Positions 22,532 to 40,046 of a stretch of DNA of 41,088 nt are shown here, one piece after another. The stretch is from Candidatus Woesearchaeota archaeon. Its GTDB lineage: Archaea > Nanobdellota > Nanobdellia > Woesearchaeales > JACPBO01. Under the pieces are notes generated by a model, which worked only from the letters and a program-made list of their open reading frames with translations, searched no databases and had not been told where the DNA came from. The stretch covers positions 1-41,088 of the forward strand of contig JACPBO010000010.1 in NCBI GenBank assembly GCA_016180285.1. Direction: 5' to 3'. The position numbers and the translations under genes were made by a program. Positions within the stretch are counted from its first letter, which is position 1; each line of letters starts with the position of its first letter.

Positions 22532-22608
22532 ATCAACTACAAATGAACTACTAAAAAGTAATTACAAAATAGAAAGATTTAAATATTTCAAGTGCCATAA
22601 TAAGCGCT

Positions 22609-22971
22609 ATGGGAGAAAGGCTTGAAAGAATAGTGGAAGGAGCATATGCTTTTCTGCCGGTAATAGGCAGCGTTGCAGTCGCAGCAAAATACCCTGCAGG
22701 AAATTTCACAGGCAAATATTTGATCGAAACTGCATTTCCTTTTGGAGCATATTTTTTAACCGAATTGATCTCCCCATATTATGGCGCTTCATTTAAGAAT
22801 AGGGGAAGATTTGTTGCAGGATTTCTCCTTTCCTTATTTTACGGCATTGAGATCGCGCAAGCATTCAGCGGGTTTTTTGGAAAATTTGATCCCAATGATT
22901 TTGTTGCTTATACAGCAGGCATGTGCTTGGCGTTAGCTGCGGATAAGCTAACATTCGGAAGAAATCCGTAA
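22609..22971 (+). CDS. Small membrane protein, VanZ-like appearance
   Basis: A 120-residue protein with about four hydrophobic segments; the C-terminal part (SGFFGKFDPNDFVAYTAG) has the D-x-x-D-x-x-A-x-x-x-G spacing seen in VanZ-like/DUF2809 proteins. That resemblance is weak. A TATA box GATTTAAATATT at about 22577-22588 sits about 25 bases before the ATG, giving a separate leaderless transcript. Confidence 0.6.
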   Translation: MGERLERIVEGAYAFLPVIGSVAVAAKYPAGNFTGKYLIETAFPFGAYFLTELISPYYGASFKNRGRFVAGFLLSLFYGIEIAQAFSGFFGKFDPNDFVAYTAGMCLALAADKLTFGRNP

Positions 22972-22974
22972 TTG

Positions 22975-23000
22975 CCATTTTTGCTTATTTTATTTTACAT
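22975..23000. terminator. T-rich run between convergent genes
   Basis: CCATTTTTGCTTATTTTATT lies just after the stop of the rightward membrane gene and before the 3' end of the leftward lipoprotein gene. Oligo-T runs are the usual archaeal termination signal. No hairpin is needed or obvious. Confidence 0.4.
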
Positions 23001-23016
23001 TCTCCTATGAGGATTA

Positions 23017-23964
23017 TTAATTCTTAGTGAGTTCGTTCTTTGCAGAAGATAAGGCATCACATCGTAGTTTCTGTCTGGATCCAAGTTCATATTGTTTATC
23101 AAACAGATGATCCATTTTATTTTCTAATAAGCTGCCTGATTTGTTTGATGTATTTGGAAGAAATTTTAAATTGCCTTTGTAAGGGGCTCTGTATATGTCC
23201 CACTGCTCATGACCTATCCATCCATTTTTTCCGTAATAACCAACAAGAAGTTCAATAATATTGCCTTCATTATCCGTTCTAAAGTCATTTACTTCCAATA
23301 GACATTTATTTTGCGCTATAGCTTCTAGTTGGTCTTCATTTATTCCTAATCCATTCCATAATTCCTTTTTAAGTTCCTGAATCGTATATTGTTTTCTTGC
23401 AATGATGGATGGAAAAGCACTAATCTCCTTTTTATCCCCATTTAATGAAACTTCGTATATATGATTACCCGACTTATATGATTCTGTGGTAACATAAAAT
23501 TTATCTCTAAAAGAACCTTCCAAAAAAACATAAGCCTCGAACTGTTCGGGTATAAATATTAGCTTATGACTTCCATCAGCAGGGTCAACTAGGCTAATGC
23601 ATAGTTTGTGTCTTGTCTCATTAGGCATAAGGGAATAAACAGGTACAAGAATTTTTCCATTGTCCAACTGGCGCAGATTATTTCTGCCACCAAAGAAATT
23701 ATCTATAATCTCATCACCTAAATCTATTTTTATTGGAGCTTTATCGCCAATATAAATTTCTTGAGAACCAGAACCCATTTTCCTGCTTGTGTAAGCAACA
23801 CTGTCTCCTAAGAAAGCTGCAAGCCATTCGGCTTTTGTATCATTTGTTAATTTTACAGCATTGTACTTTTCAACTAATCTATTTTTAGCTGTGCACCCTG
23901 TTGTTAGGTATGTTAGATAAGATACCATTAAAGCAATATAAAGTGCCTTGGTTTTTTTATCCAT
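23017..23964 (-). CDS. Lipoprotein of unknown function
   Basis: A 315-residue protein with a signal peptide and lipobox LTTGC (Cys24). The mature part looks beta-rich with repeated short strands and aromatic residues (KIDLGDEIIDNFFGG, GKILVPVYSL), loosely reminiscent of a beta-propeller, but no family is recognised. RBS AAGGAG is about nine bases before the ATG. It follows the surface-protein gene at 24024 by 59 bases and probably is the last gene of the same operon. Confidence 0.6.
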   Translation of the reverse strand: MDKKTKALYIALMVSYLTYLTTGCTAKNRLVEKYNAVKLTNDTKAEWLAAFLGDSVAYTSRKMGSGSQEIYIGDKAPIKIDLGDEIIDNFFGGRNNLRQLDNGKILVPVYSLMPNETRHKLCISLVDPADGSHKLIFIPEQFEAYVFLEGSFRDKFYVTTESYKSGNHIYEVSLNGDKKEISAFPSIIARKQYTIQELKKELWNGLGINEDQLEAIAQNKCLLEVNDFRTDNEGNIIELLVGYYGKNGWIGHEQWDIYRAPYKGNLKFLPNTSNKSGSLLENKMDHLFDKQYELGSRQKLRCDALSSAKNELTKN

Positions 23965-24023
23965 TTTATTCTTCTCCTTAATTTATCAAGAACCACCTAT
24001 CAGATATGGGTGTAATGCTGCTG

Positions 24024-25694
24024 TCATTTCCTCTGATCATGCGGCACTAGAACAGCAGCTGATGTTATGGCATTATTTCCGGCGTTATCAGCTGATTCGA
24101 CAGTTATTGTATAATTCCTGCCGTCATTGTCGTTGCCATCTCTCCATGCTATCAGCTTTATCGAGGTATTAAATCCATTTACAGTATTTTTAACTTCATT
24201 ATACTCATCAATTAATTTGAAGCTGTTAATTTTAACGCCGCTTAAGGAATCAACAGCATAGCCATTTACCTTAACGCTCACTTCTTTATGGTCCGGAGGC
24301 CATATTTGATTTGGATTTAATGCCAAGCTTAACTCTGGCGGTGTTTTATCTATTTTTATTATTGTTTCTTTTGCTTCTTCTTTGTTGCCCGCATTATCTA
24401 CACTGTAATATTTCAAATACGCTATGCCCTCTGCTGTTATTGATATTGGCTCTTTATAGCTGATGTTTGGAACGCAAGCATAATTTCCAATGCAGTATAA
24501 TGTTTCTTTCACTCCGGATAAATCATCTGTGGCGCTTAAATTGATCACAGCATTTTTATTAACCCATGTGTTATTGTATTTATAATCATCCTTTGTGACA
24601 GGGGGCTCTGTATCTATCGCCATAATGACAGCATATACGCCTAAGTGGCCAATATGCGCGGTTAACTCATTTTTCTCTTTATTTATTGAAGCATTTTGAG
24701 CTATCCAATTATTGTTTTCTTCATCATAAAGATAAATATCCAGCCTATCTTCATTTATTGCCGGATCTTCATCATAACCTATAGTTATGGCTGAGGGAAG
24801 CGCAAATGCAAGTTCTTGGGGTATAAGCCTATAAACAACAAGGATATTATTTTCACTATTGATGTAAAGAGATGTATCTTCTTTCATAATTGTTATAATT
24901 GTACCGGAGAGAGCATTGTTTGTTGTAACAATAGTGCCGCTTCCTTTTAATGCATCAGGCGGGACATCTAGCTCTATGAAGGACCCTCTTAAGATTATAG
25001 AGCATCCTGGAGCTCCGCAAAGCGCTGATGTCGCAAGAGTTCCCGAACCAGCAGCTCCGCCTGTTCCTCCACCGGAACCGCCTCCAGCTGGCCCGCCAGC
25101 AGTTCCGCAGTCAACAGAGCTAAGCGGAGCAGGGGGATCCCATCTGGCATTCTCTAAACCATGGCAAACAAGGCGATAGTTTGGTTTATCATAGGCAAGA
25201 TGTGTAATGGTCCAGGACCATGGAGGGTCCCAGCGTTCATACCCACACCCAGGCTCGCCATCAGGATCAACGCATTTATATTTATTGCCATCCTGGGGCG
25301 GAGTATAAATAGGAGTCTCTGGCCACTTCTCAAAAGTCGGTTCAGTAGTGCAATCGCCAGTATAAAATTTTCTTATATTGCCATTGCAGTCGCAATAATA
25401 GCTCTGGTAAGAAACATCATTATTGTATGCCATCATAAATTGCGTATTGCTGCCGCCAACACGGCCCCCAACAGTTTGGGAACAGTCGCACCCGATTATC
25501 ATGTTTCCACTAACTTGATACATACTTACATGATTCTCAAAACAAAAATACTCTTGTATGCCCCCAGTGCCAAGAGCTGCGCATCCTTCATTACATCCGT
25601 TAACACTGTCGCTGCCACCGCCATTTGCCAGAGGAAGAACTACAAGAAATGCCAATAAGAACATTACTGAATAATTTATTTCCTTGTTTATCAT
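24024..25694 (-). CDS. Secreted multi-domain protein with ZU5-like and Ig-like domains
   Basis: A 556-residue protein: signal peptide (about 1-25), a Cys-rich region (about 30-195), a Gly-rich linker (about 203-220), a ZU5-like segment (about 232-355; ELDVPPDALKGSG, then YRLIPQELAFALP and HLGVYAV), an Ig-like domain of the OmpL47 type (about 362-455; LSATDDLSGVKETLYC to VDNAGN), and a second Ig-like domain (about 460-550) ending without a membrane anchor. The start is fixed by the four-base ATGA overlap with the gene before it. Probably a surface protein working with the glycine-rich protein of the same operon. Confidence 0.7.
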   Translation of the reverse strand: MINKEINYSVMFLLAFLVVLPLANGGGSDSVNGCNEGCAALGTGGIQEYFCFENHVSMYQVSGNMIIGCDCSQTVGGRVGGSNTQFMMAYNNDVSYQSYYCDCNGNIRKFYTGDCTTEPTFEKWPETPIYTPPQDGNKYKCVDPDGEPGCGYERWDPPWSWTITHLAYDKPNYRLVCHGLENARWDPPAPLSSVDCGTAGGPAGGGSGGGTGGAAGSGTLATSALCGAPGCSIILRGSFIELDVPPDALKGSGTIVTTNNALSGTIITIMKEDTSLYINSENNILVVYRLIPQELAFALPSAITIGYDEDPAINEDRLDIYLYDEENNNWIAQNASINKEKNELTAHIGHLGVYAVIMAIDTEPPVTKDDYKYNNTWVNKNAVINLSATDDLSGVKETLYCIGNYACVPNISYKEPISITAEGIAYLKYYSVDNAGNKEEAKETIIKIDKTPPELSLALNPNQIWPPDHKEVSVKVNGYAVDSLSGVKINSFKLIDEYNEVKNTVNGFNTSIKLIAWRDGNDNDGRNYTITVESADNAGNNAITSAAVLVPHDQRK

Positions 25695-26305
25695 TTTACA
25701 TTTACCTTTGTAACTTCCGGGCTTCCATATTCTTCTTTAATTGTTTTATTTACAGAACCATAATCTGTTACTTTAATTCTAAAATATTTATCCTTGCCTT
25801 CTTTTATTGTCTTAACCCAGAATTCTTGCCCAACATGTTCTATCTTTGCCTCGGATTGCCAAACTAATTCTTCTAAAGGTGGAGGGCAATTTGATGTTTC
25901 CGTTGGAATATACGCAGGGTTAACCCCTTTCGGGATAGGAAAGATTCCAGATTCGCCTTTTTCCTTAGGCAGAACCTTAAGAGTAAGATCCTTTTCTAAA
26001 GCAAATTCTGCTAAATTTTTATTTGAAGAATCTTCAAAAAGAAAGCCGTTAAGATAGTAATTATGACCCGGTATTAATATGCCATAACAGCGCATTCCAA
26101 AAACAGATTCTGAATACGTTACATCCCTATAGTTTACTTCAACTACTACACTTCCTTCCTCATTCAGAGCACCTGTTCCGATTTTTGAGGCGTCATATAT
26201 GTCATGATGTTTTGGGCTAAGGGCTTGTTTTACAGATGGGTAGGCCGCCAAAGTAGCTAAAAGAATGCTGCTGATTACTGCTATTTTTTTAGTTGTTGCT
26301 TTCAT
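25691..26305 (-). CDS. Secreted/anchored protein of unknown function
   Basis: A 204-residue protein with an N-terminal hydrophobic segment (about 7-23) that may be a signal peptide or anchor, then a polar domain with a Cys pair candidate (Cys72 and Cys140 region). No family recognised. The ATG at 26305 is chosen because GGAGGT lies eight bases upstream, formed by the end of the glycine-rich gene; a longer version from 26332 overlaps that gene. Its stop overlaps the next start as ATGA. Confidence 0.6.
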   Translation of the reverse strand: MKATTKKIAVISSILLATLAAYPSVKQALSPKHHDIYDASKIGTGALNEEGSVVVEVNYRDVTYSESVFGMRCYGILIPGHNYYLNGFLFEDSSNKNLAEFALEKDLTLKVLPKEKGESGIFPIPKGVNPAYIPTETSNCPPPLEELVWQSEAKIEHVGQEFWVKTIKEGKDKYFRIKVTDYGSVNKTIKEEYGSPEVTKVNVK

Positions 26306-26309
26306 TTTA

Positions 26310-29300
26310 TTAACCTCCGCATTTTGGAGCAATTCCTATTGAATCGCTAGCTGTTGCTTCAGCGCACCTGTCCTCTATTTTTGCAATACACTTTATATTA
26401 TCCCCGTAATCAGTATATTGCTTGGGTATGGTCAACTCAACAATGCAGGTGCAGCTGGCATAATCCCAATCACAATTAGTAACATCATTCATAACGCCAT
26501 TCGGATAGCTGTTTGCCAAAGAGCCATGGCCGCCACTAATATTGTATTCCACTTCATTAGTGTATTCTGCTGCGCCACCAGAGCAATCGCCCCTTATTTC
26601 TATTCTGCACAGTAGATCGTCACAAACAGTAGGTGATGCATCGCTGTTTTTTGCCGCTATATCTGCGCTTACTGTTAGCGCATGATTTTCTGTAGGCACA
26701 GACGTATTGCTGATGAATGAAATTGAATCTTGGCTGTTTCCAGCTTCTCCATCTGCGCCTGATGGCTTGCAAGGTTTGCCGCAATATGGGCTGATTAAAG
26801 AAATCGAACAGCCTTCACCATAGTCTTTTCCTCCTTTTCCAGCTATTCCGCCTTTTCCGCCTTTTGCATTTGCAGTGCAATCAGAACAAGAGCCTGCTTC
26901 CCCTCCATCCCCGGCATTTCCACCGCTGCCAGAAATGCCAGTTTGGTGCTCGTAATAATATCCGCAAAAATTACACACATCTGTTGAACAATGCGATCCT
27001 GGCAAGCAAGACGCTGAATTTCCTGCGTTTCCGCCATCTCCAGCATCACCGCCGTTTAAACTAAATGTATTTTTGCATGAGCTTTCTTTTAATCCGCTGA
27101 TAGTTCCTGCATCGCCACCATCTCCTGCATTACTTCCAGATCCGGTATTTCCCTGGGTATCTCCTCCTTTTCCCCCGCTTCCTCCATTCCCGCCATTAAG
27201 AGAAAATTTACTGCAGCCAACGATGAGGCCATCTATAATAACAGTTCCAGCATTTCCGCCATTGCTGCCCTCTGTTCCATCTGCAGCATCCGTCATTAAA
27301 GAAGCCTCAGTACACCCTGGATATCTGCATACGCCCGCTCTGTCACTATAACAGGAGTAAGCTCCCCCGGCTCCATTCCCGCCACTGCCTCCACTGCCTC
27401 CATTTGCAGAGAACAAATAAGAGTTTATTACAGGCTTATTATCGTTGTGATTTACTTTAATATTTATAGAGCCTCCATTTCCTCCCTTGCTAGACTCTGC
27501 TGATAGCCCTGCTTTACCAGGCATGCTTGAAAAACACGAGCTTGTGAAATGTGTGAAGCAGCCGCTGCCATCAGCTGGTTTTCCTCCATTTCCGCCGTTT
27601 CCGCCATTGCCAGCATTTGCTGATAAACTTCCTGCTTTGGAATCGCACTTATATTTATCAAAATTAATATTAATTGCCCCGCCATCTCCGGCTTTTCCGG
27701 CTTTTTTTCCTGAACCACTATCTCCTCCATCATATAAAATATAATTTATAGTAAACGTGCCGCTCCACCAGAAAACTGTTTCATAGTACCTTCCGGTTGT
27801 AGGGCCTCTGCTGCCATCACCGCCTTTACCCCCTAAGCCTGCATTGCCTCCGTTAGCAATTGCTGAAACAGAAGATTTGCTTAGTTTTGCTTTAATATTT
27901 ATAGGCCCGCCATTTCCAGCATTTCCTCCAATACCTCCGTCTTTTCCATTTGGATCGCCAGAGCAACTGCATAATCCTCCATAGCAATAATTAGAGCCCT
28001 CTGTAGAGCCAACACAATCACCAGATCCTCCTGCTCCACCATCGCCGCCTCTGCCGCCATTAGAAATAAATTTGCACTCACCTTCAAGAACACCAACATC
28101 TATTGTTATTGGCTTTCCATCTTTTCCATTTGTTCCATCTACTCCAGCTGTCGGAGCAGGGCCAGAAACGCCTTTTGCGCCATTAACGCCATTATCCCCG
28201 CTCATATCAAATGCTGAGCCAGGAGCGCAATAAAGCTTTTCTTCACTAATCACAGAAAACCCTGTATGCTTTGACTTTGTCCCGTTTATTACGCCATATA
28301 ATTCAAAATCACCGGTTAAATTAAACACTAAATCGCCATCAACCACTACCTTTCCGTAGATCTTAACATTCTCAGCATTGATTATAACATTATCAACAGC
28401 CTTTAATGTAACAGTTGAATCAATCACTAAATCTTTAAAATTATAGGTTCCAGAAACTTCAGAGCTTTTTTTGATGCTGCAATCTGAAAGATTATTCTCG
28501 CTGCAGTATTGCAAAGTATTGCATTGCGTTAAATCTGTGCAGCAGTCATTTGGGTCATTATTTGGGTTCTCATAGTTAGGGTCGCAAACGCCATCTCCAA
28601 CGTAACAATCCTTGGGACAGTTTCCATTGCTTTCAGGATAATATGGCTTGTTAGCATCGCAAACTCCGTTTCCGCATGTTGCCATAAAATCAGTATAATA
28701 ATCAAAACAGCAGTATTGGCTTTGGCTGCAGTCTGGAAAACCTCCTTTCTCTCCCGTGCTGTCTATAACAACCCCGCCAAACCAGTAACTGCGCCATGAT
28801 GTTCTCCCAAAACACCAGCTATAATTCTGGCCATAGTAATTCCAGAACCATGCATAATCTGCGCAGAAATAATAATTGCCTCTGTTTAAGCATGAGCATT
28901 TAGGATAAGGGTTTTCGCAGCCATCTGCATCTGTTCCTGCGCCGTCTCCATTGCAGTCTGTATAATTTACAGGGCAGGATGAGCTTACTGTTGTGAAAGA
29001 AGAAAAGTGGGAAGCAGTAAAGGCCAGTATTCTGAGCACAGGATCGTAAGAAACATTAAAGCACGTATCTTCCGGGCATGGATTCTTGATTTCATTTCTA
29101 TTGGTTGTGAATTCATTCGTATATAATATCCTGGGTGTTTGTTTGTAATGGAGATTTTCTATTGTAATTGCGGCCGGTTCATTGAGCTCCGGCAATTCTT
29201 TGCTGTTTATAGCAATCAGATTATCATCAACATAAATATTTGGGTTTTCTTCAACATCAGTTACATCCATGCCAATATCTTTGTCAAATTTTATTTTTCC

Positions 29301-29627
29301 TTTTCCTTTGTTTTCAATTATTTTATTTTCATTAATGGAAACTTCTTTCTTCTTTTTTATTTTTTTAGCTTCTTTATCAGCAATGCCTTCTGTTGAAGCT
29401 GCAGCAGTTGAAATTAAATTATTGCATGCTTCATAAATATAGGGCAGGGTTGTGTTTTCAGGATCAATGCCTGCTTCAATTAACTTTTTATTTAAATCTG
29501 CTTTGTCTATTTTTGACAAATCACTGCAGATTTTAGAGAAATCCTGCTCTGAAATATTGGCAGAAGAAATATTTATGAGTAACAAAAAGGATAAGATCAA
29601 AGCGAGTAATAGTATGCTGCACTTCAT
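26310..29627 (-). CDS. Giant glycine-rich secreted protein
   Basis: A 1105-residue protein: signal peptide (about 1-23); an N-terminal domain with a K/E-rich stretch (about 100-125); Cys-rich EF-hand-like and NGVCD-type motifs (about 215-365); a beta-solenoid-like stretch (about 385-470); a glycine-rich region (about 475-965) with runs such as GGNGGSGGKGGD alternating with short hydrophobic beta segments; and a C-terminal Cys-rich beta domain (about 985-1105). There is no C-terminal membrane helix or sorting signal that I can see. The glycine runs resemble PE_PGRS-like or glycine-rich beta-helix sheets. TATA GTTTATAAAGT (minus strand, about 29669-29679) lies about 45 bases upstream. It heads the secreted operon. 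Confidence 0.7.
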   Translation of the reverse strand: MKCSILLLALILSFLLLINISSANISEQDFSKICSDLSKIDKADLNKKLIEAGIDPENTTLPYIYEACNNLISTAAASTEGIADKEAKKIKKKKEVSINENKIIENKGKGKIKFDKDIGMDVTDVEENPNIYVDDNLIAINSKELPELNEPAAITIENLHYKQTPRILYTNEFTTNRNEIKNPCPEDTCFNVSYDPVLRILAFTASHFSSFTTVSSSCPVNYTDCNGDGAGTDADGCENPYPKCSCLNRGNYYFCADYAWFWNYYGQNYSWCFGRTSWRSYWFGGVVIDSTGEKGGFPDCSQSQYCCFDYYTDFMATCGNGVCDANKPYYPESNGNCPKDCYVGDGVCDPNYENPNNDPNDCCTDLTQCNTLQYCSENNLSDCSIKKSSEVSGTYNFKDLVIDSTVTLKAVDNVIINAENVKIYGKVVVDGDLVFNLTGDFELYGVINGTKSKHTGFSVISEEKLYCAPGSAFDMSGDNGVNGAKGVSGPAPTAGVDGTNGKDGKPITIDVGVLEGECKFISNGGRGGDGGAGGSGDCVGSTEGSNYCYGGLCSCSGDPNGKDGGIGGNAGNGGPINIKAKLSKSSVSAIANGGNAGLGGKGGDGSRGPTTGRYYETVFWWSGTFTINYILYDGGDSGSGKKAGKAGDGGAININFDKYKCDSKAGSLSANAGNGGNGGNGGKPADGSGCFTHFTSSCFSSMPGKAGLSAESSKGGNGGSINIKVNHNDNKPVINSYLFSANGGSGGSGGNGAGGAYSCYSDRAGVCRYPGCTEASLMTDAADGTEGSNGGNAGTVIIDGLIVGCSKFSLNGGNGGSGGKGGDTQGNTGSGSNAGDGGDAGTISGLKESSCKNTFSLNGGDAGDGGNAGNSASCLPGSHCSTDVCNFCGYYYEHQTGISGSGGNAGDGGEAGSCSDCTANAKGGKGGIAGKGGKDYGEGCSISLISPYCGKPCKPSGADGEAGNSQDSISFISNTSVPTENHALTVSADIAAKNSDASPTVCDDLLCRIEIRGDCSGGAAEYTNEVEYNISGGHGSLANSYPNGVMNDVTNCDWDYASCTCIVELTIPKQYTDYGDNIKCIAKIEDRCAEATASDSIGIAPKCGG
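26740..28200 (-). repeat. Glycine-rich repeat region
   Basis: Encodes roughly residues 475-965 of the giant protein. Clusters of 10-30 residues dominated by Gly with Asn, Asp, Ala and Ser (for example NGGNAGLGGKGGDG, AGNGGNGGNGG, NGGSGGSGGNGAGG) are separated by 20-40 residue segments such as SINIKVN or PINIKAKL. At DNA level the region is full of degenerate CC-rich triplets (CCGCCATTTCC), so the other frames and strand stay open over long stretches; those frames are by-products. Confidence 0.75.
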
Positions 29628-29711
29628 TAACCCAGCTCCCTAACCCCTCTAAACCAATAAAACACATCTACTTTATAAACTTTTCTATATTTAATCACTG
29701 AGAAATAGTTA

Positions 29712-30458: not shown

Positions 30459-30606
30459 AGTGAAATTATTGGTTTTATTTGGTTTATATAGTTTTCTTAT
30501 TTTCCGTATTGGTCACCCTGTGGATGTCAATCCTATCCGTTAAATAGCGGATGTTCTTAGTAGTCTTGTTTTTTCTCACTTTTTTGAAACCAGTAATTAC
30601 AGCCAA

Positions 30607-30675
30607 GTCAAGTCTGCACGAATAAAGACAGTGGACATGTCAAGTCCAACTCATTTGAGTAATATTTATAAAGTT
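30607..30675 (+). promoter_or_regulatory. Promoter and candidate operator of the ribbon-helix-helix operon
   Basis: TATA box AATATTTATAAAG (30661-30673) ends 24 bases before the ATG of the ribbon-helix-helix gene. Upstream, TGGAC (30632-30636) and GTCCA (30644-30648) form an inverted repeat, and GTCAAGTC occurs twice (30607-30614 and 30639-30646) on one face 32 bases apart. Ribbon-helix-helix repressors often bind such short repeats at their own promoters, so autoregulation is likely. Confidence 0.45.
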
Positions 30676-30697
30676 GTGCAAATATTTACTGGTTAGA

Positions 30698-30835
30698 ATG
30701 GCTAGTAAGAATATAACACTCAAAGTCGATGAGAAAATCTATAAAATGTATAAAAAGTATTGCAAGAAAAAAGGATTGGTTATATCTCGCCAATTCGAAA
30801 TATTTGTTGAAAAACAATTAAAGAAGGGAAATTAA
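30698..30835 (+). CDS. Ribbon-helix-helix DNA-binding protein (45 residues)
   Basis: A 45-residue frame beginning MASKNITLKVDEKIYKMYKK: a beta strand (NITLKV) followed by two helices, the pattern of an Arc/MetJ/CopG-type ribbon-helix-helix dimer. Such proteins are often antitoxins or autorepressors. It starts 24 bases after a TATA box and is the first gene of an operon with exact junctions: next ATG one base after its stop. Base composition is AT-rich. Confidence 0.7.
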   Translation: MASKNITLKVDEKIYKMYKKYCKKKGLVISRQFEIFVEKQLKKGN

Positions 30836-30836
30836 C

Positions 30837-30974
30837 ATGTATCTCAACGAATTTTTAACAATCATGGAAAAAATTGAATCATTAAGGCAAAAACAATCAG
30901 AAACAACTTCCGACATAAACAATTTGTTTGATGCATTGATGCAGAAAGCGTTTAATGGTGAGTTAGTCGAATGA
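30837..30974 (+). CDS. Mini-protein equal to the C-terminal helix of HsdS
   Basis: A 45-residue frame whose sequence (EKIESLRQKQSETTSDIN, then NLFDALMQKAFNGELV) matches the end of type I restriction specificity subunits, where the last helix of HsdS packs against the methyltransferase subunit and ends in LF-x-S/A-L-x-Q-K/R-A-F-x-G-E-L. No target-recognition domain or hsdM/hsdR is present. It has its own ATG, an AGAAGGG site upstream, and overlaps the rhomboid gene as ATGA, so it is translated in the operon rather than being an obvious remnant. Its role is unknown: a decayed tail kept for coupling, or an oligomerisation or decoy peptide. Confidence 0.65.
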   Translation: MYLNEFLTIMEKIESLRQKQSETTSDINNLFDALMQKAFNGELVE

Positions 30975-31900
30975 AGAAACTCTCCAAGAAACAAAGACTG
31001 AATTTATTGATTAAAAGATTGAGTTATCAGAATCTTTTAAAGGATTCCAAAAAAATTGTCGGAAATATTACTTTTATGGATATAATTTTGTTATTGATTC
31101 TACCCCTAATTATAACTCTGTTAATGCTCTTACCTGATGCAATAAGAACAGCTATGCAAATTCACATCAAAGAACCAATGTGGTGGCAGTTATTTACTGC
31201 TAGTTACATGCATGGAAGTTGGAAACATTTAACTGATAACTTAACGGGATATTTTTGGTTTGTTATCCCAATATTTATCTTTGCAGCATATTCTAATCTG
31301 AAGCAATTATACTATAAAATGTACCTTACGATTTGTATCTCGCTCCCAATAATTAGTGGATTTGCGGAATTATGGATAACACCAAAATATTTTCCTAATT
31401 TGTTGACATCGACAGGAACCTCGGGAGTAATATCTGCTTTTTTAGGCATCATAATTTTTATTTGGATTAGACACTATGCAATTAAAAGTAACAATAACCT
31501 CCATAATAACTTATTCTTTTATTTGATATTATTTTATGTAGCATTAATTTTTTCATGCATATACTCGTTTAAGTCTATAATTTTAATATTGCCTCTCGCC
31601 TCGCTCTTCTTATTATTTGTATTTTTATGGAGAAAGAATTTTAATATTCTGTATTTCATAATTCAAAAAGAAAGTAAACGAAATATGTTAATTTTATTCT
31701 TGTCTTTATTTATTCCCTTATTTTTTATGGTTGCACCATTCCTTCTATTTCCGACTATTAACAATGTCGCAAGTAATGGGACGCTCGTGAACTTTTTTAT
31801 GCATTATTTTGGTTTAATCTATGGTGTGATAATTGGGTGGTTATTTGTAATGATTGATAAGAGTACATTTAGGAGAAAACAAACGGAGAATAATTCATGA
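30971..31900 (+). CDS. Rhomboid-family intramembrane serine protease
   Basis: A 309-residue multi-pass membrane protein with the rhomboid layout: HGSWKHLTDN (His81, His86, Asn90), catalytic GTSG with Ser151, and a late membrane helix with His278 (MHYFGLIYG), giving the Ser-His dyad. About seven membrane segments; there is an extra hydrophobic region (about 180-260) between the Ser and His helices that is longer than in bacterial GlpG. The substrate is unknown. Coupled by four-base overlaps to the mini-HsdS gene before and the PIN gene after it, which makes a shared function likely. Confidence 0.85.
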   Translation: MKKLSKKQRLNLLIKRLSYQNLLKDSKKIVGNITFMDIILLLILPLIITLLMLLPDAIRTAMQIHIKEPMWWQLFTASYMHGSWKHLTDNLTGYFWFVIPIFIFAAYSNLKQLYYKMYLTICISLPIISGFAELWITPKYFPNLLTSTGTSGVISAFLGIIIFIWIRHYAIKSNNNLHNNLFFYLILFYVALIFSCIYSFKSIILILPLASLFLLFVFLWRKNFNILYFIIQKESKRNMLILFLSLFIPLFFMVAPFLLFPTINNVASNGTLVNFFMHYFGLIYGVIIGWLFVMIDKSTFRRKQTENNS

Positions 31901-32250
31901 GCAGGCTTTACATTGACACAAATCTCTTCATCAATGTCATTAATAATGAAGTGAGTATGCATTCGAATAAGAATATGGCTGAGCCATGGACGGTAAAAGA
32001 ACTATTAAAAAAGCTTCGCGGAGATCAAATTAAAGCATCTTTTGAGATTTTGAAAAGGAAAATCGAAATCTGCAAATATTCTCTTGAAGAAGAAGTTCAA
32101 GCAAGAAAACGATCAGAAACTAATTTTCCAGATGCTCTTCATATTGTAATTGCTGAAAATGTAAAAGCAGATTATATCATCACAAGAAACATTGACGACT
32201 TTCTTCAAATCGGAACAAAAATACCAATAAAAAAACCAGAATTATTGTAA
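31897..32250 (+). CDS. PIN-domain protein (VapC-like), short
   Basis: A 117-residue PIN-fold protein: LYIDTNLFIN with Asp7, FPDALHIVIAENVKADYIITRN with Asp79, and the final NIDDF (Asp100/101). Glu35 in TVKELL may be the central acid. The stretch between Asp7 and Glu35 is shorter than in usual VapC nucleases, so one secondary-structure element may be missing and activity is uncertain. It overlaps the rhomboid stop by four bases. A classic vapB antitoxin is not adjacent; the ribbon-helix-helix protein at the head of the operon is the nearest candidate. Its 3' end overlaps the convergent wHTH gene by nine bases. Confidence 0.75.
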   Translation: MSRLYIDTNLFINVINNEVSMHSNKNMAEPWTVKELLKKLRGDQIKASFEILKRKIEICKYSLEEEVQARKRSETNFPDALHIVIAENVKADYIITRNIDDFLQIGTKIPIKKPELL

Positions 32251-33387
32251 GCCTGCTTGTTCTAGCAACCATTCTTGGAATTTATCGTGTCCTAGTTCTT
32301 TCTCTTTTTGTTCTAAGAATTTTTCCTGTTTCTTCTGTTCATCTTCAGTAAGAAGAACTACCGAACTTAACATAGCTTTTATTTTTCTATATGTTTCATC
32401 GTCTGGCTCTGCTTGACGAGGGAGAAGATCATTAAGGTACTTTAAATGTTCAATAACTTCCATCTTTTGAGTATTCATTTCAGAAATGAAATGTTTTAGC
32501 TCAAGTTCTTTACTGAAATTATTTGAATAATAAGGTTCCAAATCTGAGAAGTAATTATACAAAGCAATTAGTTTCCAAATCTCGTTGAATGATTGATAGA
32601 TATCATTCTTTACCATTTTAAGATCTTCATCAGAAATAGCATTTACCATTTGTAAAACTAAACCGACAAAATCATTTACTAATCTCTTAGAAACTTTATC
32701 AAAAATGGGGGGAGAGTTTTTTAGTAGAGTGTAAAGTTGATTATTTATCTCTTGAATATATTTTTTAGAGAAATTAGATGAAGATAATAGAGACAATAAC
32801 ATTTCTTTTGTTTTATAAAGAGTGTGATTTTCTTCATTATAATGTCTTAATTTGAGTGCTGTTGCGTTGACTTCTTTCGAATAAGTTCCAACTATATCGA
32901 CTATGCATTTGTTTACTTCGTCATTTAATCCAGAAAAATCATAATCTAAATTTTGGTCGTAAGGTTTGACACACAATGTTCCAAATTGATACCATCCAAT
33001 TGGAAGATTCAAATTACATTCTTTATTTATTCTTGCAAGAGTTTTTTGTACTTGGATTCTACCAGGAATTATTCCTGTTTTTTGTTTCCACTCTTCTTTA
33101 ATTTTAGAAAATAAAGAATCAATTAGTTTTTCATCTTCTGATCTTATTGGTAAATCAAAATAATTCCCTGTTTTGTTAGTTTTATCACATTGCACTAAAG
33201 AGAATACTCTTTTATTTGCGATTTCTGTTTCTAACAGTACGCCTGCCTCTTTTAGACTTTCCAGGTATATCTTAATAGATTCCCAATTAGATTCGCAATC
33301 TTTGGCAATTTCGTGTATTGACTTTGGAGCTTCAGACACAGATTTTAAAATTCTTTTTATAAGCTCCTTAGCAGATTTCCTCTCCAT
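32242..33387 (-). CDS. Winged-helix protein with long helical domain, unknown
   Basis: A 381-residue protein: N-terminal winged helix (about 1-65; KSIHEIAKDCESNWESIKIYLESLKEAG), then a helical region with a conserved-looking segment IGWYQFGTLCVKPYD (about 134-148) and coiled-coil-like helices to the end (ELEQKEKELGHDKFQEWLLEQAG at the C-terminus). No known family recognised beyond the wHTH. TATA AATTTATATAC (minus strand, about 33407-33417) is about 25 bases before the ATG. It converges on the PIN gene and faces a structured intergenic region, so it may regulate the divergent small membrane genes or the island. Confidence 0.6.
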   Translation of the reverse strand: MERKSAKELIKRILKSVSEAPKSIHEIAKDCESNWESIKIYLESLKEAGVLLETEIANKRVFSLVQCDKTNKTGNYFDLPIRSEDEKLIDSLFSKIKEEWKQKTGIIPGRIQVQKTLARINKECNLNLPIGWYQFGTLCVKPYDQNLDYDFSGLNDEVNKCIVDIVGTYSKEVNATALKLRHYNEENHTLYKTKEMLLSLLSSSNFSKKYIQEINNQLYTLLKNSPPIFDKVSKRLVNDFVGLVLQMVNAISDEDLKMVKNDIYQSFNEIWKLIALYNYFSDLEPYYSNNFSKELELKHFISEMNTQKMEVIEHLKYLNDLLPRQAEPDDETYRKIKAMLSSVVLLTEDEQKKQEKFLEQKEKELGHDKFQEWLLEQAGLQ

Positions 33388-33404
33388 TTTAATAAAAGTA
33401 CGAG

Positions 33405-33545
33405 CAATAGTATATAAATTTTTCGTTTTACTGGTAAAAAGTATTAGCAGTAGCTTATAATACTCACAAGTATAAGCTAAAACAGATAAATATTTAAATT
33501 AGAAGCAATAACTGATATACTGGACGTAAGTCCGGAGGAAAACAT
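33405..33545. promoter_or_regulatory. Structured divergent regulatory region
   Basis: Between TATA boxes for the leftward wHTH gene (33407-33417) and the rightward small membrane gene (AAATATTTAAATT, 33488-33500) lie two overlapping inverted repeats: AGTATTA (33440-33446)/TAATACT (33458-33464) and TAGCTTATA (33451-33459)/TATAAGCTA (33471-33479). They could form alternative hairpins or be two operators. In the rightward leader, CTGGAC-GTAA-GTCCGG (33520-33535) forms a hairpin with a GNRA-type loop whose last two bases belong to the ribosome binding site GGAGG (33534-33538). Confidence 0.5.
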
Positions 33546-33739
33546 ATGGTACAGAAAATTTTTGGATCGGAATGGGTGCAACAGGCATCGTCGGTGTATT
33601 AATCATAGCAGGACTCCTTTTGAAAGGAACAAATCTTTCAGCAGGAATGGGCGACCTAGCAATCTTTGGTGGCGTTGGAATAGGCATCGTGCTAGGATTA
33701 CTTGGAATATTTGCTGTCGCAAAAAGAGTGATTGGCTAA
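33546..33739 (+). pseudogene. Small two-helix membrane protein with apparent frameshift
   Basis: The ATG at 33546 has an ideal GGAGG site but its frame stops after 18 codons (MVQKIFGSEW...). A second frame, entered just after ATTTTTGG (33559-33565), encodes WIGMGATGIVGVLIIAG, and on to FAVAKRVIG, two membrane helices, ending exactly one base before the next ATG. Adding one T to the T5 run would join MVQKIF to WIGMG and give a 64-residue protein. Alternatives: translation starts at the weakly preceded ATG at 33572, programmed slippage, or a sequencing error. Confidence 0.6.
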
Positions 33740-33985
33740 ATGGGCAAGATTACTATTTTTGGAATAATTGCATTTATTGTAGCACTATCGGTATTCTTGT
33801 TAAATAATTATATCCAAGGCGTTGCAGAAGACGCCATGCTGGATGCAACTGGTCAAGTCGTTAAAGACAGTCCGATTGATCAACAAACAAAAACTTCAAT
33901 ATTATCAACACTGACACTTTATGAAATTGCAGGTTTCTTTGTATTCATTGGAGGAATAGTATTTTTGGTCAAAAAATTCTTTTGA
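33740..33985 (+). CDS. Small membrane protein of unknown function
   Basis: An 81-residue protein with an N-terminal hydrophobic helix (about 3-22), an acidic/polar middle (about 25-55) and a C-terminal helix (about 60-78). It starts directly after the stop codon of the preceding small membrane gene, with no strong RBS of its own, so it depends on coupled translation. No family recognised. Confidence 0.6.
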   Translation: MGKITIFGIIAFIVALSVFLLNNYIQGVAEDAMLDATGQVVKDSPIDQQTKTSILSTLTLYEIAGFFVFIGGIVFLVKKFF

Positions 33986-34142
33986 ATAAGTAATTCTCTA
34001 AGAAAACAGCCGAATTCTTAACAGCCTACGGTTAATATCTACAGGTTGAACAATACGCTTATTTTCATTCACCAAGTACAGGCAAGACATTAGTTCTCGC
34101 ATAAAACGAAAACAATTTAAACAGCTTCAATCCCGCTTTTTC
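33986..34142 (+). promoter_or_regulatory. Intergenic region with TATA box
   Basis: The only signal I see is AACAATTTAAAC at 34108-34119, about 24 bases before the ATG at 34143, a leaderless promoter for the broken gene that follows. The rest holds no convincing frame or structure. Confidence 0.4.
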
Positions 34143-34564
34143 ATGGTTGAATTCAATCCAGACGGCAGCATTAAGCTTCCAGAACAGCTTGCAAAAAAGA
34201 AGAAAATAAGGAAAAATTAAGATCTCAGAGATGTATAAAAATAAAAAGAAATGCAGTAAGCTTCACTGCTCCAAAAAAATGCGTCCTTCACATAACTCTT
34301 TCAGAAGCTTTTGCCGATAACAGATTCATAGACACCATTTATACTTATTTTAAAGAAAGGTCAGTTGTTCCGCATAAAATAAAGAAGCTCAATGAAAAGC
34401 AGTTTGAAATTGAGATAGGCACTGATTTTAAGAGGTGCAGCGACTGCAACTCCCTGATTAACAGTTATAGAGAATTCTTAGACGGCAACATAATTGATGA
34501 AAAAGGCAGCTGCACATTTGAAGGAGCGAATAAAAGTTTCTGCTATGAAGATTATTTTAGCTGA
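34143..34564 (+). pseudogene. Conserved hypothetical protein broken by a one-base frameshift
   Basis: The frame starting at 34143 (MVEFNPDGSIKLPEQLAKK) stops at 34218-34220. Another frame then gives RCIKIKRNAVSFTAPKKCV, through IEIGTDFKRCSDCNSLIN and REFLDGN, to SFCYEDYFS, stopping at 34562-34564. Adding one A to the A6 run at 34193-34198 joins the two into about 140 residues with a C-x2-C pair (KRCSDCN) and several other Cys. The sequence style (FNPDGSIKLP start, CSDC motif) recalls a small conserved protein of DPANN archaea, which I cannot name. The promoter is intact, so this is either a recent inactivation or a sequencing error. Confidence 0.6.
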
Positions 34565-34594
34565 TAAGGGCAATTGTGAATGCATCAGCAAGGC

Positions 34595-38375: not shown

Positions 38376-40046
38376 CTATGCATCATGCTTTTTTATTATA
38401 GTCAATTTCCTGAATCTCTTATCATTCTGATTTGGAAAATCCTCCCTGAAATGGCATGCCCTGGATTCTTCCCTTGCAATGGCGCTTTCTACAATTATGC
38501 CGGCAACATCCGCTATGTTCCTGACTTCTAAGAATTCCTTGCTCACATGATAATTCCAGTAAAATCCGTTGATGTTTTTTCTGAGCGCGGATAATACTTG
38601 CTTTGCAGCATCCAATCTTTCTTTATTTCTTGATATTCCGCACAATGAAGTCATTGTTCTTCTGACAGTTTCCCAATAATAGGCTATGGCAGCCTTGTCC
38701 CTTATATCATTTGCAGAGCCCGCATTCCATAATGGAACACTCATATTTGCTTGATTCTTGAGCTTTAAGAAATGCTTTGCAGCCAGCCTGCCGAATAAAA
38801 TGCATTCTGGCGCAGAATTGCTAGCCAGCCTTGTTGCGCCGTGCAGGCCTGTATAAGAAGTTTCACCTATGACATAGCATCCTCTTATTTTTGTTTCTGC
38901 ATTCCGGTTAACAAGCACGCCTCCATTTGAATAATGAACAGCATAAATGACAGGCACAGGCTCTTTTGTTATGTCGACTCCCTTGGCCAAGCAGAACTCA
39001 TAAGAATTCCTGAAATCCTCCTTTAATCTTTTTTTGTCTATTTTTGCGCAGTCCAGCCATAAATGCGCCAAGCCGTGTTTTCTCATTTCTATATCTTCTG
39101 CTCTTGTAACAACGTCCCTTGTTGCTTTCGAGCCAAGCGGATGATATTTTAAAACAAAATCTTCTTTTGAATCTTTTCTTAGCTTCAATATTGCGCCTGC
39201 TCCTCTAAGCGCCTCTGTAAGCAAAAATCTTCTGCTGTATTCATTGACAGCAGACGGGTCATAAAACACAGTTGGGTGAAATTGCACAAATTCCATGTTT
39301 GCCAATGGCAAGCCTGCCCTATAGCATATTGCAAATCCATCTCCTGTTGCAGCATCTGAGTTTGTTGTATAAAGAAAGACTTTCCCAAGGCCGCCTGTTG
39401 CAATGAATGTTCCATTGCAGGAGATTGTTTCAATACGATCATTTTTAATATCATAAACATAAAACCCCAGGCAGGCATCTTTCGCTTTTGCCTTGATTTT
39501 TTTTCTTTTTTCCAGCTTGTTCTTTGTTATAAGGTCAATTGCAACATGCTCTTCATGAACCCTTATATTGCGGTTGCTTTTCACTAACCTGCCAAGCGTC
39601 TTCATTATCTGCACGCCTGTTGTGTCATTTGCGTGAAATATCCTGTTTTTGGAATGGCCGCCTTCCCTGTGCAGATCATACTTGTATCCTTTTTCAGATG
39701 CATTAAATTTAACGCCTTTGCCAATCAGCCACTGAATAACATCTTTGAAAAAATGCTCCACGCAGAATTTAACAATCTTGACATCATTAAGGCCTTTTCC
39801 TGCAATCAATGTTTCTTTAATATGCCTTTCAAAGGAATCTCCCTTAATAGGCTTTCCATCCACCAGAGGAATTGCTGCCAGGCCGCCGGCTGTCAAATAG
39901 CTGTTGCAGTCTTCCACTAACTTTCCTTTGATAAATAAGTCAACCTTTTTGCCGGCTCCAGCCAGTTCGAGCGCAGCTGCGCAGCCGCCAAAGCCGCCGC
40001 CTATTACTCCGCAATCTGTTTTTATAAGCTCTTTTGCGCTGCTCAT
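38376..40046 (-). CDS. nadB: L-aspartate oxidase
   Basis: FAD enzyme oxidising L-aspartate to iminoaspartate, the first step of de novo NAD synthesis. In 556 residues: FAD site CGVIGGGFGGCAAALELA (about 11-28), GGLAAIP, EFVQFHPTVFYDP, RRFLLTEALRGAGAIL with the substrate-binding Arg, and YTGLHGATRLASNS near the end of the FAD domain, then a helical C-terminal domain. The succinate dehydrogenase/fumarate reductase flavoprotein is the close relative, but the ATGA overlap with nadA makes NadB the right call. Confidence 0.92.
   Translation of the reverse strand: MSSAKELIKTDCGVIGGGFGGCAAALELAGAGKKVDLFIKGKLVEDCNSYLTAGGLAAIPLVDGKPIKGDSFERHIKETLIAGKGLNDVKIVKFCVEHFFKDVIQWLIGKGVKFNASEKGYKYDLHREGGHSKNRIFHANDTTGVQIMKTLGRLVKSNRNIRVHEEHVAIDLITKNKLEKRKKIKAKAKDACLGFYVYDIKNDRIETISCNGTFIATGGLGKVFLYTTNSDAATGDGFAICYRAGLPLANMEFVQFHPTVFYDPSAVNEYSRRFLLTEALRGAGAILKLRKDSKEDFVLKYHPLGSKATRDVVTRAEDIEMRKHGLAHLWLDCAKIDKKRLKEDFRNSYEFCLAKGVDITKEPVPVIYAVHYSNGGVLVNRNAETKIRGCYVIGETSYTGLHGATRLASNSAPECILFGRLAAKHFLKLKNQANMSVPLWNAGSANDIRDKAAIAYYWETVRRTMTSLCGISRNKERLDAAKQVLSALRKNINGFYWNYHVSKEFLEVRNIADVAGIIVESAIAREESRACHFREDFPNQNDKRFRKLTIIKKHDA

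What the first reader, a model, noticed from the sequence alone, without database searches (positions are those of the whole stretch)
30698..32250. Coupled operon: ribbon-helix-helix protein, HsdS-tail mini-protein, rhomboid protease, PIN protein
Seen: four genes from one TATA box, with a one-base gap and then ATGA overlaps, so translation is coupled throughout. Known: ribbon-helix-helix plus PIN pairs are usual toxin-antitoxin parts; rhomboids cut membrane proteins; the HsdS C-terminal helix docks onto HsdM. Inference: the four together may be a membrane-linked toxin or defence module in which proteolysis releases or activates a nuclease. I know of no described system with this composition.
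Basis: partly seen in the sequence, partly recalled or inferred. Interest (0 to 1): 0.75.

Follow-up and report, generated by a model that had tools for sequence, protein, structure and literature searches.

The report
Relic restriction operon beside RNase-like pair
Four small genes that looked like a new membrane-controlled toxin system in a tiny archaeon are mostly the collapsed remains of a DNA-restriction operon, but the search exposed a conserved, apparently undescribed pair of overlapping, head-on genes (an RNase-like protein and a DNA-binding protein) that travels with such restriction systems.

Summary
The four ORFs, the one-base gap and the two ATGA overlaps are real. The proposed four-part module is not supported as such. 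(1) The 45-residue protein is the C-terminal tail of a type I HsdS; this genome has no detectable N6-methylase partner. (2) The ribbon-helix-helix gene resembles the gene that precedes hsdM in a relative. (3) In a relative the same locus reads hsdS, membrane gene, PIN, then a convergent winged-helix gene; hsdS overlaps the next gene by ATGA there too. The window is therefore best read as RHH-[hsdM and most of hsdS deleted]-S tail-rhomboid-PIN. The two overlap at their 3' ends in 19 of 19 loci (17 genomes) and co-diverge (Mantel r 0.79). (5) The window's PIN has lost about 18 core residues that all 18 relatives keep. (6) The whole 3.56-kb block is absent from the same-genus genome and lies between 9-bp repeats. 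(7) The rhomboid is intact at its motif residues, rare, and variably placed beside restriction, CRISPR or nuclease-like genes. Most likely: a partly decayed restriction-linked defence island. The new object is the convergent PIN/winged-helix pair.

The parts
30496..30504 (.). left copy of the 9-bp direct repeat CTTATTTTC at the island edge
   Evidence: the same-genus genome has one copy at the joined site; DNA alignment jumps from 30504 to 34102
30665..30672 (+). TATA-like box of the RHH gene
   Evidence: TTTATAAA, 26-33 bases before ATG; no expression data
30698..30835 (+). ribbon-helix-helix protein, 45 aa; first gene of a former restriction operon
   Evidence: relatives precede an hsdM-like gene in G144 (E 5e-14, ATGA overlap) and two N6_N4 methylases in G001 (E 3e-10)
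30837..30974 (+). C-terminal tail of an HsdS specificity subunit, 45 aa (relic)
30971..31900 (+). rhomboid-like intramembrane serine protease, 309 aa, motif residues intact
31897..32250 (+). PIN-domain protein, 117 aa, about 18 core residues shorter than its relatives
33572..33739 (+). small two-TM protein (TM55 family) that also follows the pair in G061, G081 and G067; its usual start MVQKIFG (ATG 33546) is out of frame here
33740..33985 (+). 81-aa two-TM ORF without a relative in the fetched loci
34058..34066 (.). right copy of the 9-bp direct repeat CTTATTTTC

Best explanation
The block 30505-34066 is a defence island derived from a type I restriction-modification (R-M) locus that has largely collapsed. 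The ancestral order, inferred from relatives, was RHH regulator, hsdM, hsdS, one accessory (often membrane) gene, then a PIN RNase-like gene converging on a winged-helix gene. A deletion fused the RHH gene to the last 45 codons of hsdS, giving the apparent mini-HsdS gene; the rhomboid is the accessory gene in this copy. In intact copies I propose that the PIN protein is a latent RNase held back or regulated by the winged-helix protein whose mRNA overlaps its own 3' end, and that it acts as a second line when the linked R-M enzyme fails or is inhibited (a PrrC-like logic). Shown: composition, order in relatives, co-divergence and 3' overlap of the pair, missing methylase, missing PIN core segment, absence of the block in the same-genus genome. 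Inferred: the direction of change (deletion), RNase activity, silencing by the winged-helix protein, and the fail-safe role. In this genome the PIN is probably impaired; the rhomboid, RHH and winged-helix genes may still work.
For: HsdS identity. Template loci: G061 hsdS 441-1577, ATGA, 286-aa gene, PIN, 9-bp overlap, winged helix, TM55; G505 hsdS end, ATGA, 287-aa gene, PIN, 6-bp overlap, winged helix. RHH ahead of hsdM with an ATGA overlap in G144 and ahead of N6_N4 methylases in G001. No PF02384 methylase in the window's genome, 96% complete. PIN lacks 12-19 (typically 17-18) of the residues between D7 and W31, and conserved S29, against 18 relatives. 3' overlap in 19/19 pair loci against 6/48 convergent neighbours with at least 6 bp. 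Mantel r 0.79, 0/10000 permutations. R-M genes near 10/17 pair loci against 1/20 control stretches. Block absent from the same-genus genome.
Against: Rhomboid, RHH, mini-S and PIN frames are all open, and the PIN shortening is in frame and keeps D7, E35, D79 and N98, so some function may persist. The RHH/mini-S junction is tidy (one base). No intact RHH-hsdM-hsdS-rhomboid-PIN locus was found in one piece; the ancestral order is pieced together from G144, G061, G505 and G298. Without an outgroup the insertion could be a loss in the sister instead. RNase and antitoxin roles are untested.
Confidence: 0.66

Rival explanations
1. The four genes are one functional new module: RHH controls transcription, the mini-HsdS coil is an adaptor or antitoxin for the PIN, and the rhomboid cuts a membrane tether to release the nuclease.
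For: Tight coupling and open frames; rhomboid motif residues intact; rhomboid and the PIN/winged-helix pair also lie within about 1 kb in G298.
Against: None of the other full-length rhomboid relatives has RHH or a mini-S beside it; the gene ahead of PIN varies; PIN lacks a core segment; nearly all other HsdS tails are in full-length HsdS; no obvious membrane anchor is seen in the PIN, mini-S or RHH sequences (by reading).
Confidence: 0.08
2. The PIN/winged-helix pair is a toxin-antitoxin-like module unrelated in function to R-M; it sits near R-M genes only because both accumulate in the same defence islands.
For: 7 of 17 pair loci have no recognised R-M gene in the fetched stretch; radC is an equally frequent neighbour (7/17).
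Against: Strict hsdS-X-PIN order with an ATGA overlap in two genomes plus the window; enrichment 10/17 against 1/20.
Confidence: 0.3
3. The mini-HsdS is not a scar but a retained half coil that still works in trans, for example on a partner supplied by the host cell of this probably symbiotic archaeon.
For: Precise open frame with its own start; separately expressed halves of HsdS can reassemble in trans (PMC3874165).
Against: No N6-methylase in the genome; it lacks any target-recognition domain; a second free tail (G330) is plainly a 97% copy of the neighbouring hsdS end.
Confidence: 0.08

Closest known systems
EcoprrI/PrrC and RloC: nucleases linked to type I restriction (PMC3874165, PMC2610378)
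   Same: an RNase-type gene travels with a type I R-M locus; RloC of G. kaustophilus lies beside a decayed hsdR relic, as the genes here lie beside an hsdS relic
   Different: the nuclease here is a PIN-domain protein with no ABC ATPase part, and it pairs with a convergent winged-helix gene
VapBC-type toxin-antitoxin (PIN toxin)
   Same: PIN domain with conserved D/E/D residues; weak profile match to a solved VapC (7BY2)
   Different: the partner is a 300-400-aa winged-helix protein on the opposite strand with a 3' overlap, not a small co-directional antitoxin
Rhomboid proteases (PF01694)
   Same: HxxxxHxxxN, GxSG and HxxGxxxG motifs
   Different: about 127 residues between the motif Ser and His; about 53 in E. 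coli GlpG by my own recollection
Type I R-M systems
   Same: HsdS tail; RHH ahead of hsdM in a relative
   Different: no M, no R and no target-recognition domains left here

Membership tests
Type I restriction-modification system | HsdS with target-recognition domains | tested here: not met
   only the last 45 codons remain
Type I restriction-modification system | HsdM methylase in the genome | tested here: not met
   no PF02384 match in G000, 96.4% complete
Rhomboid protease | motif Ser/His and TM2 His/Asn, several TM helices | tested here: met
   alignment; hydropathy gives 7 candidate TM segments
Rhomboid protease | Pfam gathering score | tested here: inconclusive
   20.8 of 22.6 bits; just over in the genome search
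Rhomboid protease | solved-structure similarity | tested here: inconclusive
   no PDB sequence hit; AlphaFold model too poor, pLDDT 48
PIN nuclease | conserved acidic residues | tested here: met
   D7, E35, D79 and N98 kept
PIN nuclease | complete PIN core | tested here: not met
   23 residues between D7 and W31 against 35-42 in 18 relatives
VapBC toxin-antitoxin | small antitoxin gene in the same operon next to the PIN gene | tested here: not met
   the conserved neighbour is convergent and large
PrrC/RloC | ABC ATPase plus anticodon-nuclease motif | tested here: not met
   no such domain in the Pfam scan of the island's main proteins
RHH antitoxin | binds own promoter or neutralises a toxin | not testable with these tools
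   weak Arc/RelB-like profile hits only

The most novel reading that the evidence does not exclude
The convergent, 3'-overlapping PIN/winged-helix pair is an undescribed RNase-plus-regulator defence module of nanoarchaeal-type genomes, linked to restriction operons as a fail-safe, whose two mRNAs regulate each other through their overlapping ends; rhomboid and other membrane proteins are its exchangeable third gene.
Probability: 0.3. Interest if true: 0.68.

Novelty: new variant of a known kind. Interest (0 to 1): 0.45.

Why it matters
It turns an apparent one-off four-gene oddity into an explained scar, a caution against reading stand-alone HsdS-tail proteins as functional adaptors. It also points to a conserved pair with a strict gene architecture (tail-to-tail overlap in every copy found) that matched no curated defence or family model as a pair here and can be tested in simple hosts. 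If the pair is an R-M-linked RNase fail-safe, it would extend the PrrC principle to archaea with small, probably symbiotic genomes.

Tried and rejected
AlphaFold models of the winged-helix protein (pLDDT 41) and of the rhomboid with two sequences (pLDDT 48) were too poor, so no fold search was run. Rhomboid relatives were sought in viral contigs (none), phages (none, using a haloarchaeal member), plasmids (haloarchaeal only; in the regions inspected a gene on its own or in mixed contexts, not restriction-linked) and genome contigs (only the G144 contig). The winged-helix family was not found in plasmids, phages or viral contigs. Literature searches for rhomboid with restriction or anti-phage defence found no system of this make-up in the titles and abstracts shown, and none for a convergent PIN/winged-helix pair. 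A bacterial sigma-70 promoter scan was no richer than shuffles. Rejected: HsdM docking (no methylase); weak PADLOC Csa3/CARF hits of the winged-helix family (in the window protein the hit covers the HTH only). No tRNA lies in the window.

Full report
What is there. The four ORFs and their couplings are as reported: RHH 30698-30835, a 45-aa ORF 30837-30974, a 309-aa rhomboid-like protein 30971-31900 and a 117-aa PIN-like protein 31897-32250, with a TATA-like box at 30665-30672.

The block is an island. The only same-genus genome held (TIM protein 91% identical) aligns on both sides but jumps from window 30504 to 34102. The sister has one CTTATTTTC at the joined site; the window has it at 30496 and again at 34058, so 3,562 bp (30505-34066, one repeat copy included) separate the sites. 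A further 27 bp to the right also differ. Gain here or loss in the sister cannot be told apart without an outgroup.

The mini-HsdS is a tail. It matches the very end of type I specificity subunits (PADLOC E 6e-9; HsdS C-termini of 3OKG/5YBB). Of the other matches in 371 genomes of the phylum, nearly all lie in frames of 370-418 aa. One exception is a 54-aa ORF in G330; there the DNA is 97% identical to the end of the adjacent full-length hsdS, with a NYN-type gene in between, an evident duplication scar. Two further matches have a stop inside the frame. The closest relative of the window's tail is the HsdS of G061 (E 1e-14). The window's genome has no N6-methylase by PF02384, so no HsdM is available.

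The template. In G061 the order is hsdS, ATGA, a 286-aa one-TM protein, PIN, 9-bp 3' overlap, winged helix, then a TM55-family gene. In G505 it is hsdS end, ATGA, a 287-aa coiled-coil-like protein, PIN, 6-bp overlap, winged helix. The window has the same frame: S tail, ATGA, rhomboid, PIN, 9-bp overlap, winged helix, TM55 family. The RHH gene resembles (E 5e-14) a gene that overlaps the start of an hsdM-like gene in G144 (hsdM and hsdS in that operon), and (E 3e-10) one before two N6_N4 methylases in the sister G001. The simplest history is a deletion that joined the first gene of an R-M operon to the tail of its hsdS. That direction is inferred.

The rhomboid. Single-sequence and profile searches find few true relatives: own genome, G144, G298, G177 and G157 among 371 genomes. 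They lie after a type IIG restriction enzyme (ATGA overlap, G144), after hsdR (G298), beside cas6/cas10-like genes (G177, by reading the sequences) and after a 128-aa nuclease-like ORF (G157, by eye; no Pfam hit). So the rhomboid is repeatedly linked with defence genes, yet no relative repeats the four-gene set. G298 comes closest: hsdR, rhomboid, then the winged-helix/PIN pair in the opposite orientation. Haloarchaeal members on plasmids are not restriction-linked in the regions inspected. Motif residues are invariant in seven aligned members.

The PIN and its real partner. Searching 193 genomes of the order with the PIN and with the 381-aa protein gave 19 loci in 17 genomes in which the two converge, and all 19 overlap at their 3' ends by 6-71 bp. 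Among 48 other convergent neighbours in fetched loci, 6 overlap by at least 6 bp (Fisher p 7e-12, not corrected for relatedness). Distances between PINs and between their partners correlate (17 loci, Mantel r 0.79, 0 of 10000 permutations). The partner has an ArsR-type winged helix at its N-terminus and a C-terminal region without a convincing family match, with a PxGWYxxG motif. R-M genes lie in 10 of 17 fetched pair loci and in 1 of 20 control stretches from the same set of genomes (p 5e-4); the R-M query set was partly chosen from these loci, which biases the contrast upward. radC is another frequent neighbour (7 of 17 against 0 of 20).

The window's copy looks partly decayed. Its PIN has 23 residues between D7 and W31; the 18 relatives have 35-42, and all keep the serine that is Glu here. 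D7, E35, D79 and N98 remain. The usual start of the TM55 gene is out of frame. A plus-strand gene just right of the island (from about 34144) is frameshifted relative to the sister by a short length difference. The RHH, rhomboid and winged-helix frames are intact.

Mechanism, with what is inferred. The closest known logic is PrrC: an anticodon nuclease silenced by its linked type I enzyme and released when a phage inhibits that enzyme (PMC2610378, PMC3874165). RloC even has a case beside an hsdR relic. I propose that intact hsdS-X-PIN/winged-helix loci work likewise, with the PIN as latent RNase and the winged-helix protein, or its overlapping transcript, as restraint. None of the activities is shown. 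In the window the arrangement has lost its R-M part and probably an active PIN.

Names.

Noticed in passing
L051 2582-4672 (G330:C14): Full-length hsdS, then a NYN-type nuclease-like gene, then a free hsdS tail that is a 97% DNA copy of the hsdS end: a gene seemingly inserted with duplication of the hsdS 3' end.
   Followed up: partly
L013 2016-6890 (G177:C26): A rhomboid of the same subfamily directly ahead of cas6/cas10/csm-like genes, identified by reading the sequences.
   Followed up: no
L014 6809-9154 (G157:C4): Rhomboid overlapping a 128-aa nuclease-like ORF, preceded by a 381-aa ORF with a possible ExK nuclease motif; no Pfam match.
   Followed up: no
window 34144-34590: Gene right of the island is frameshifted against the same-genus genome by a short length difference near its start.
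   Followed up: partly
window 22533-29670: Most of this 7-kb stretch, including an 1105-aa Gly- and Cys-rich secreted-type protein, does not align with the sister genome, which has about 4 kb there.
   Followed up: no
L006 2854-5479: The sister genome carries about 2.6 kb that the window lacks at window 38380-38389.
   Followed up: no
L141 6157-12989 (G001:C6): Sister genome defence cluster: RHH, two N6_N4 methylases, nuclease-like ORF, TM55 family, winged helix (one internal stop reported), N6 methylase, HsdS-like gene and a tyrosine-recombinase-like gene.
   Followed up: partly
L125, L128, L135, L136, L138: A radC gene lies directly upstream of the PIN gene in the same direction in five loci, sometimes overlapping it.
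   Followed up: partly
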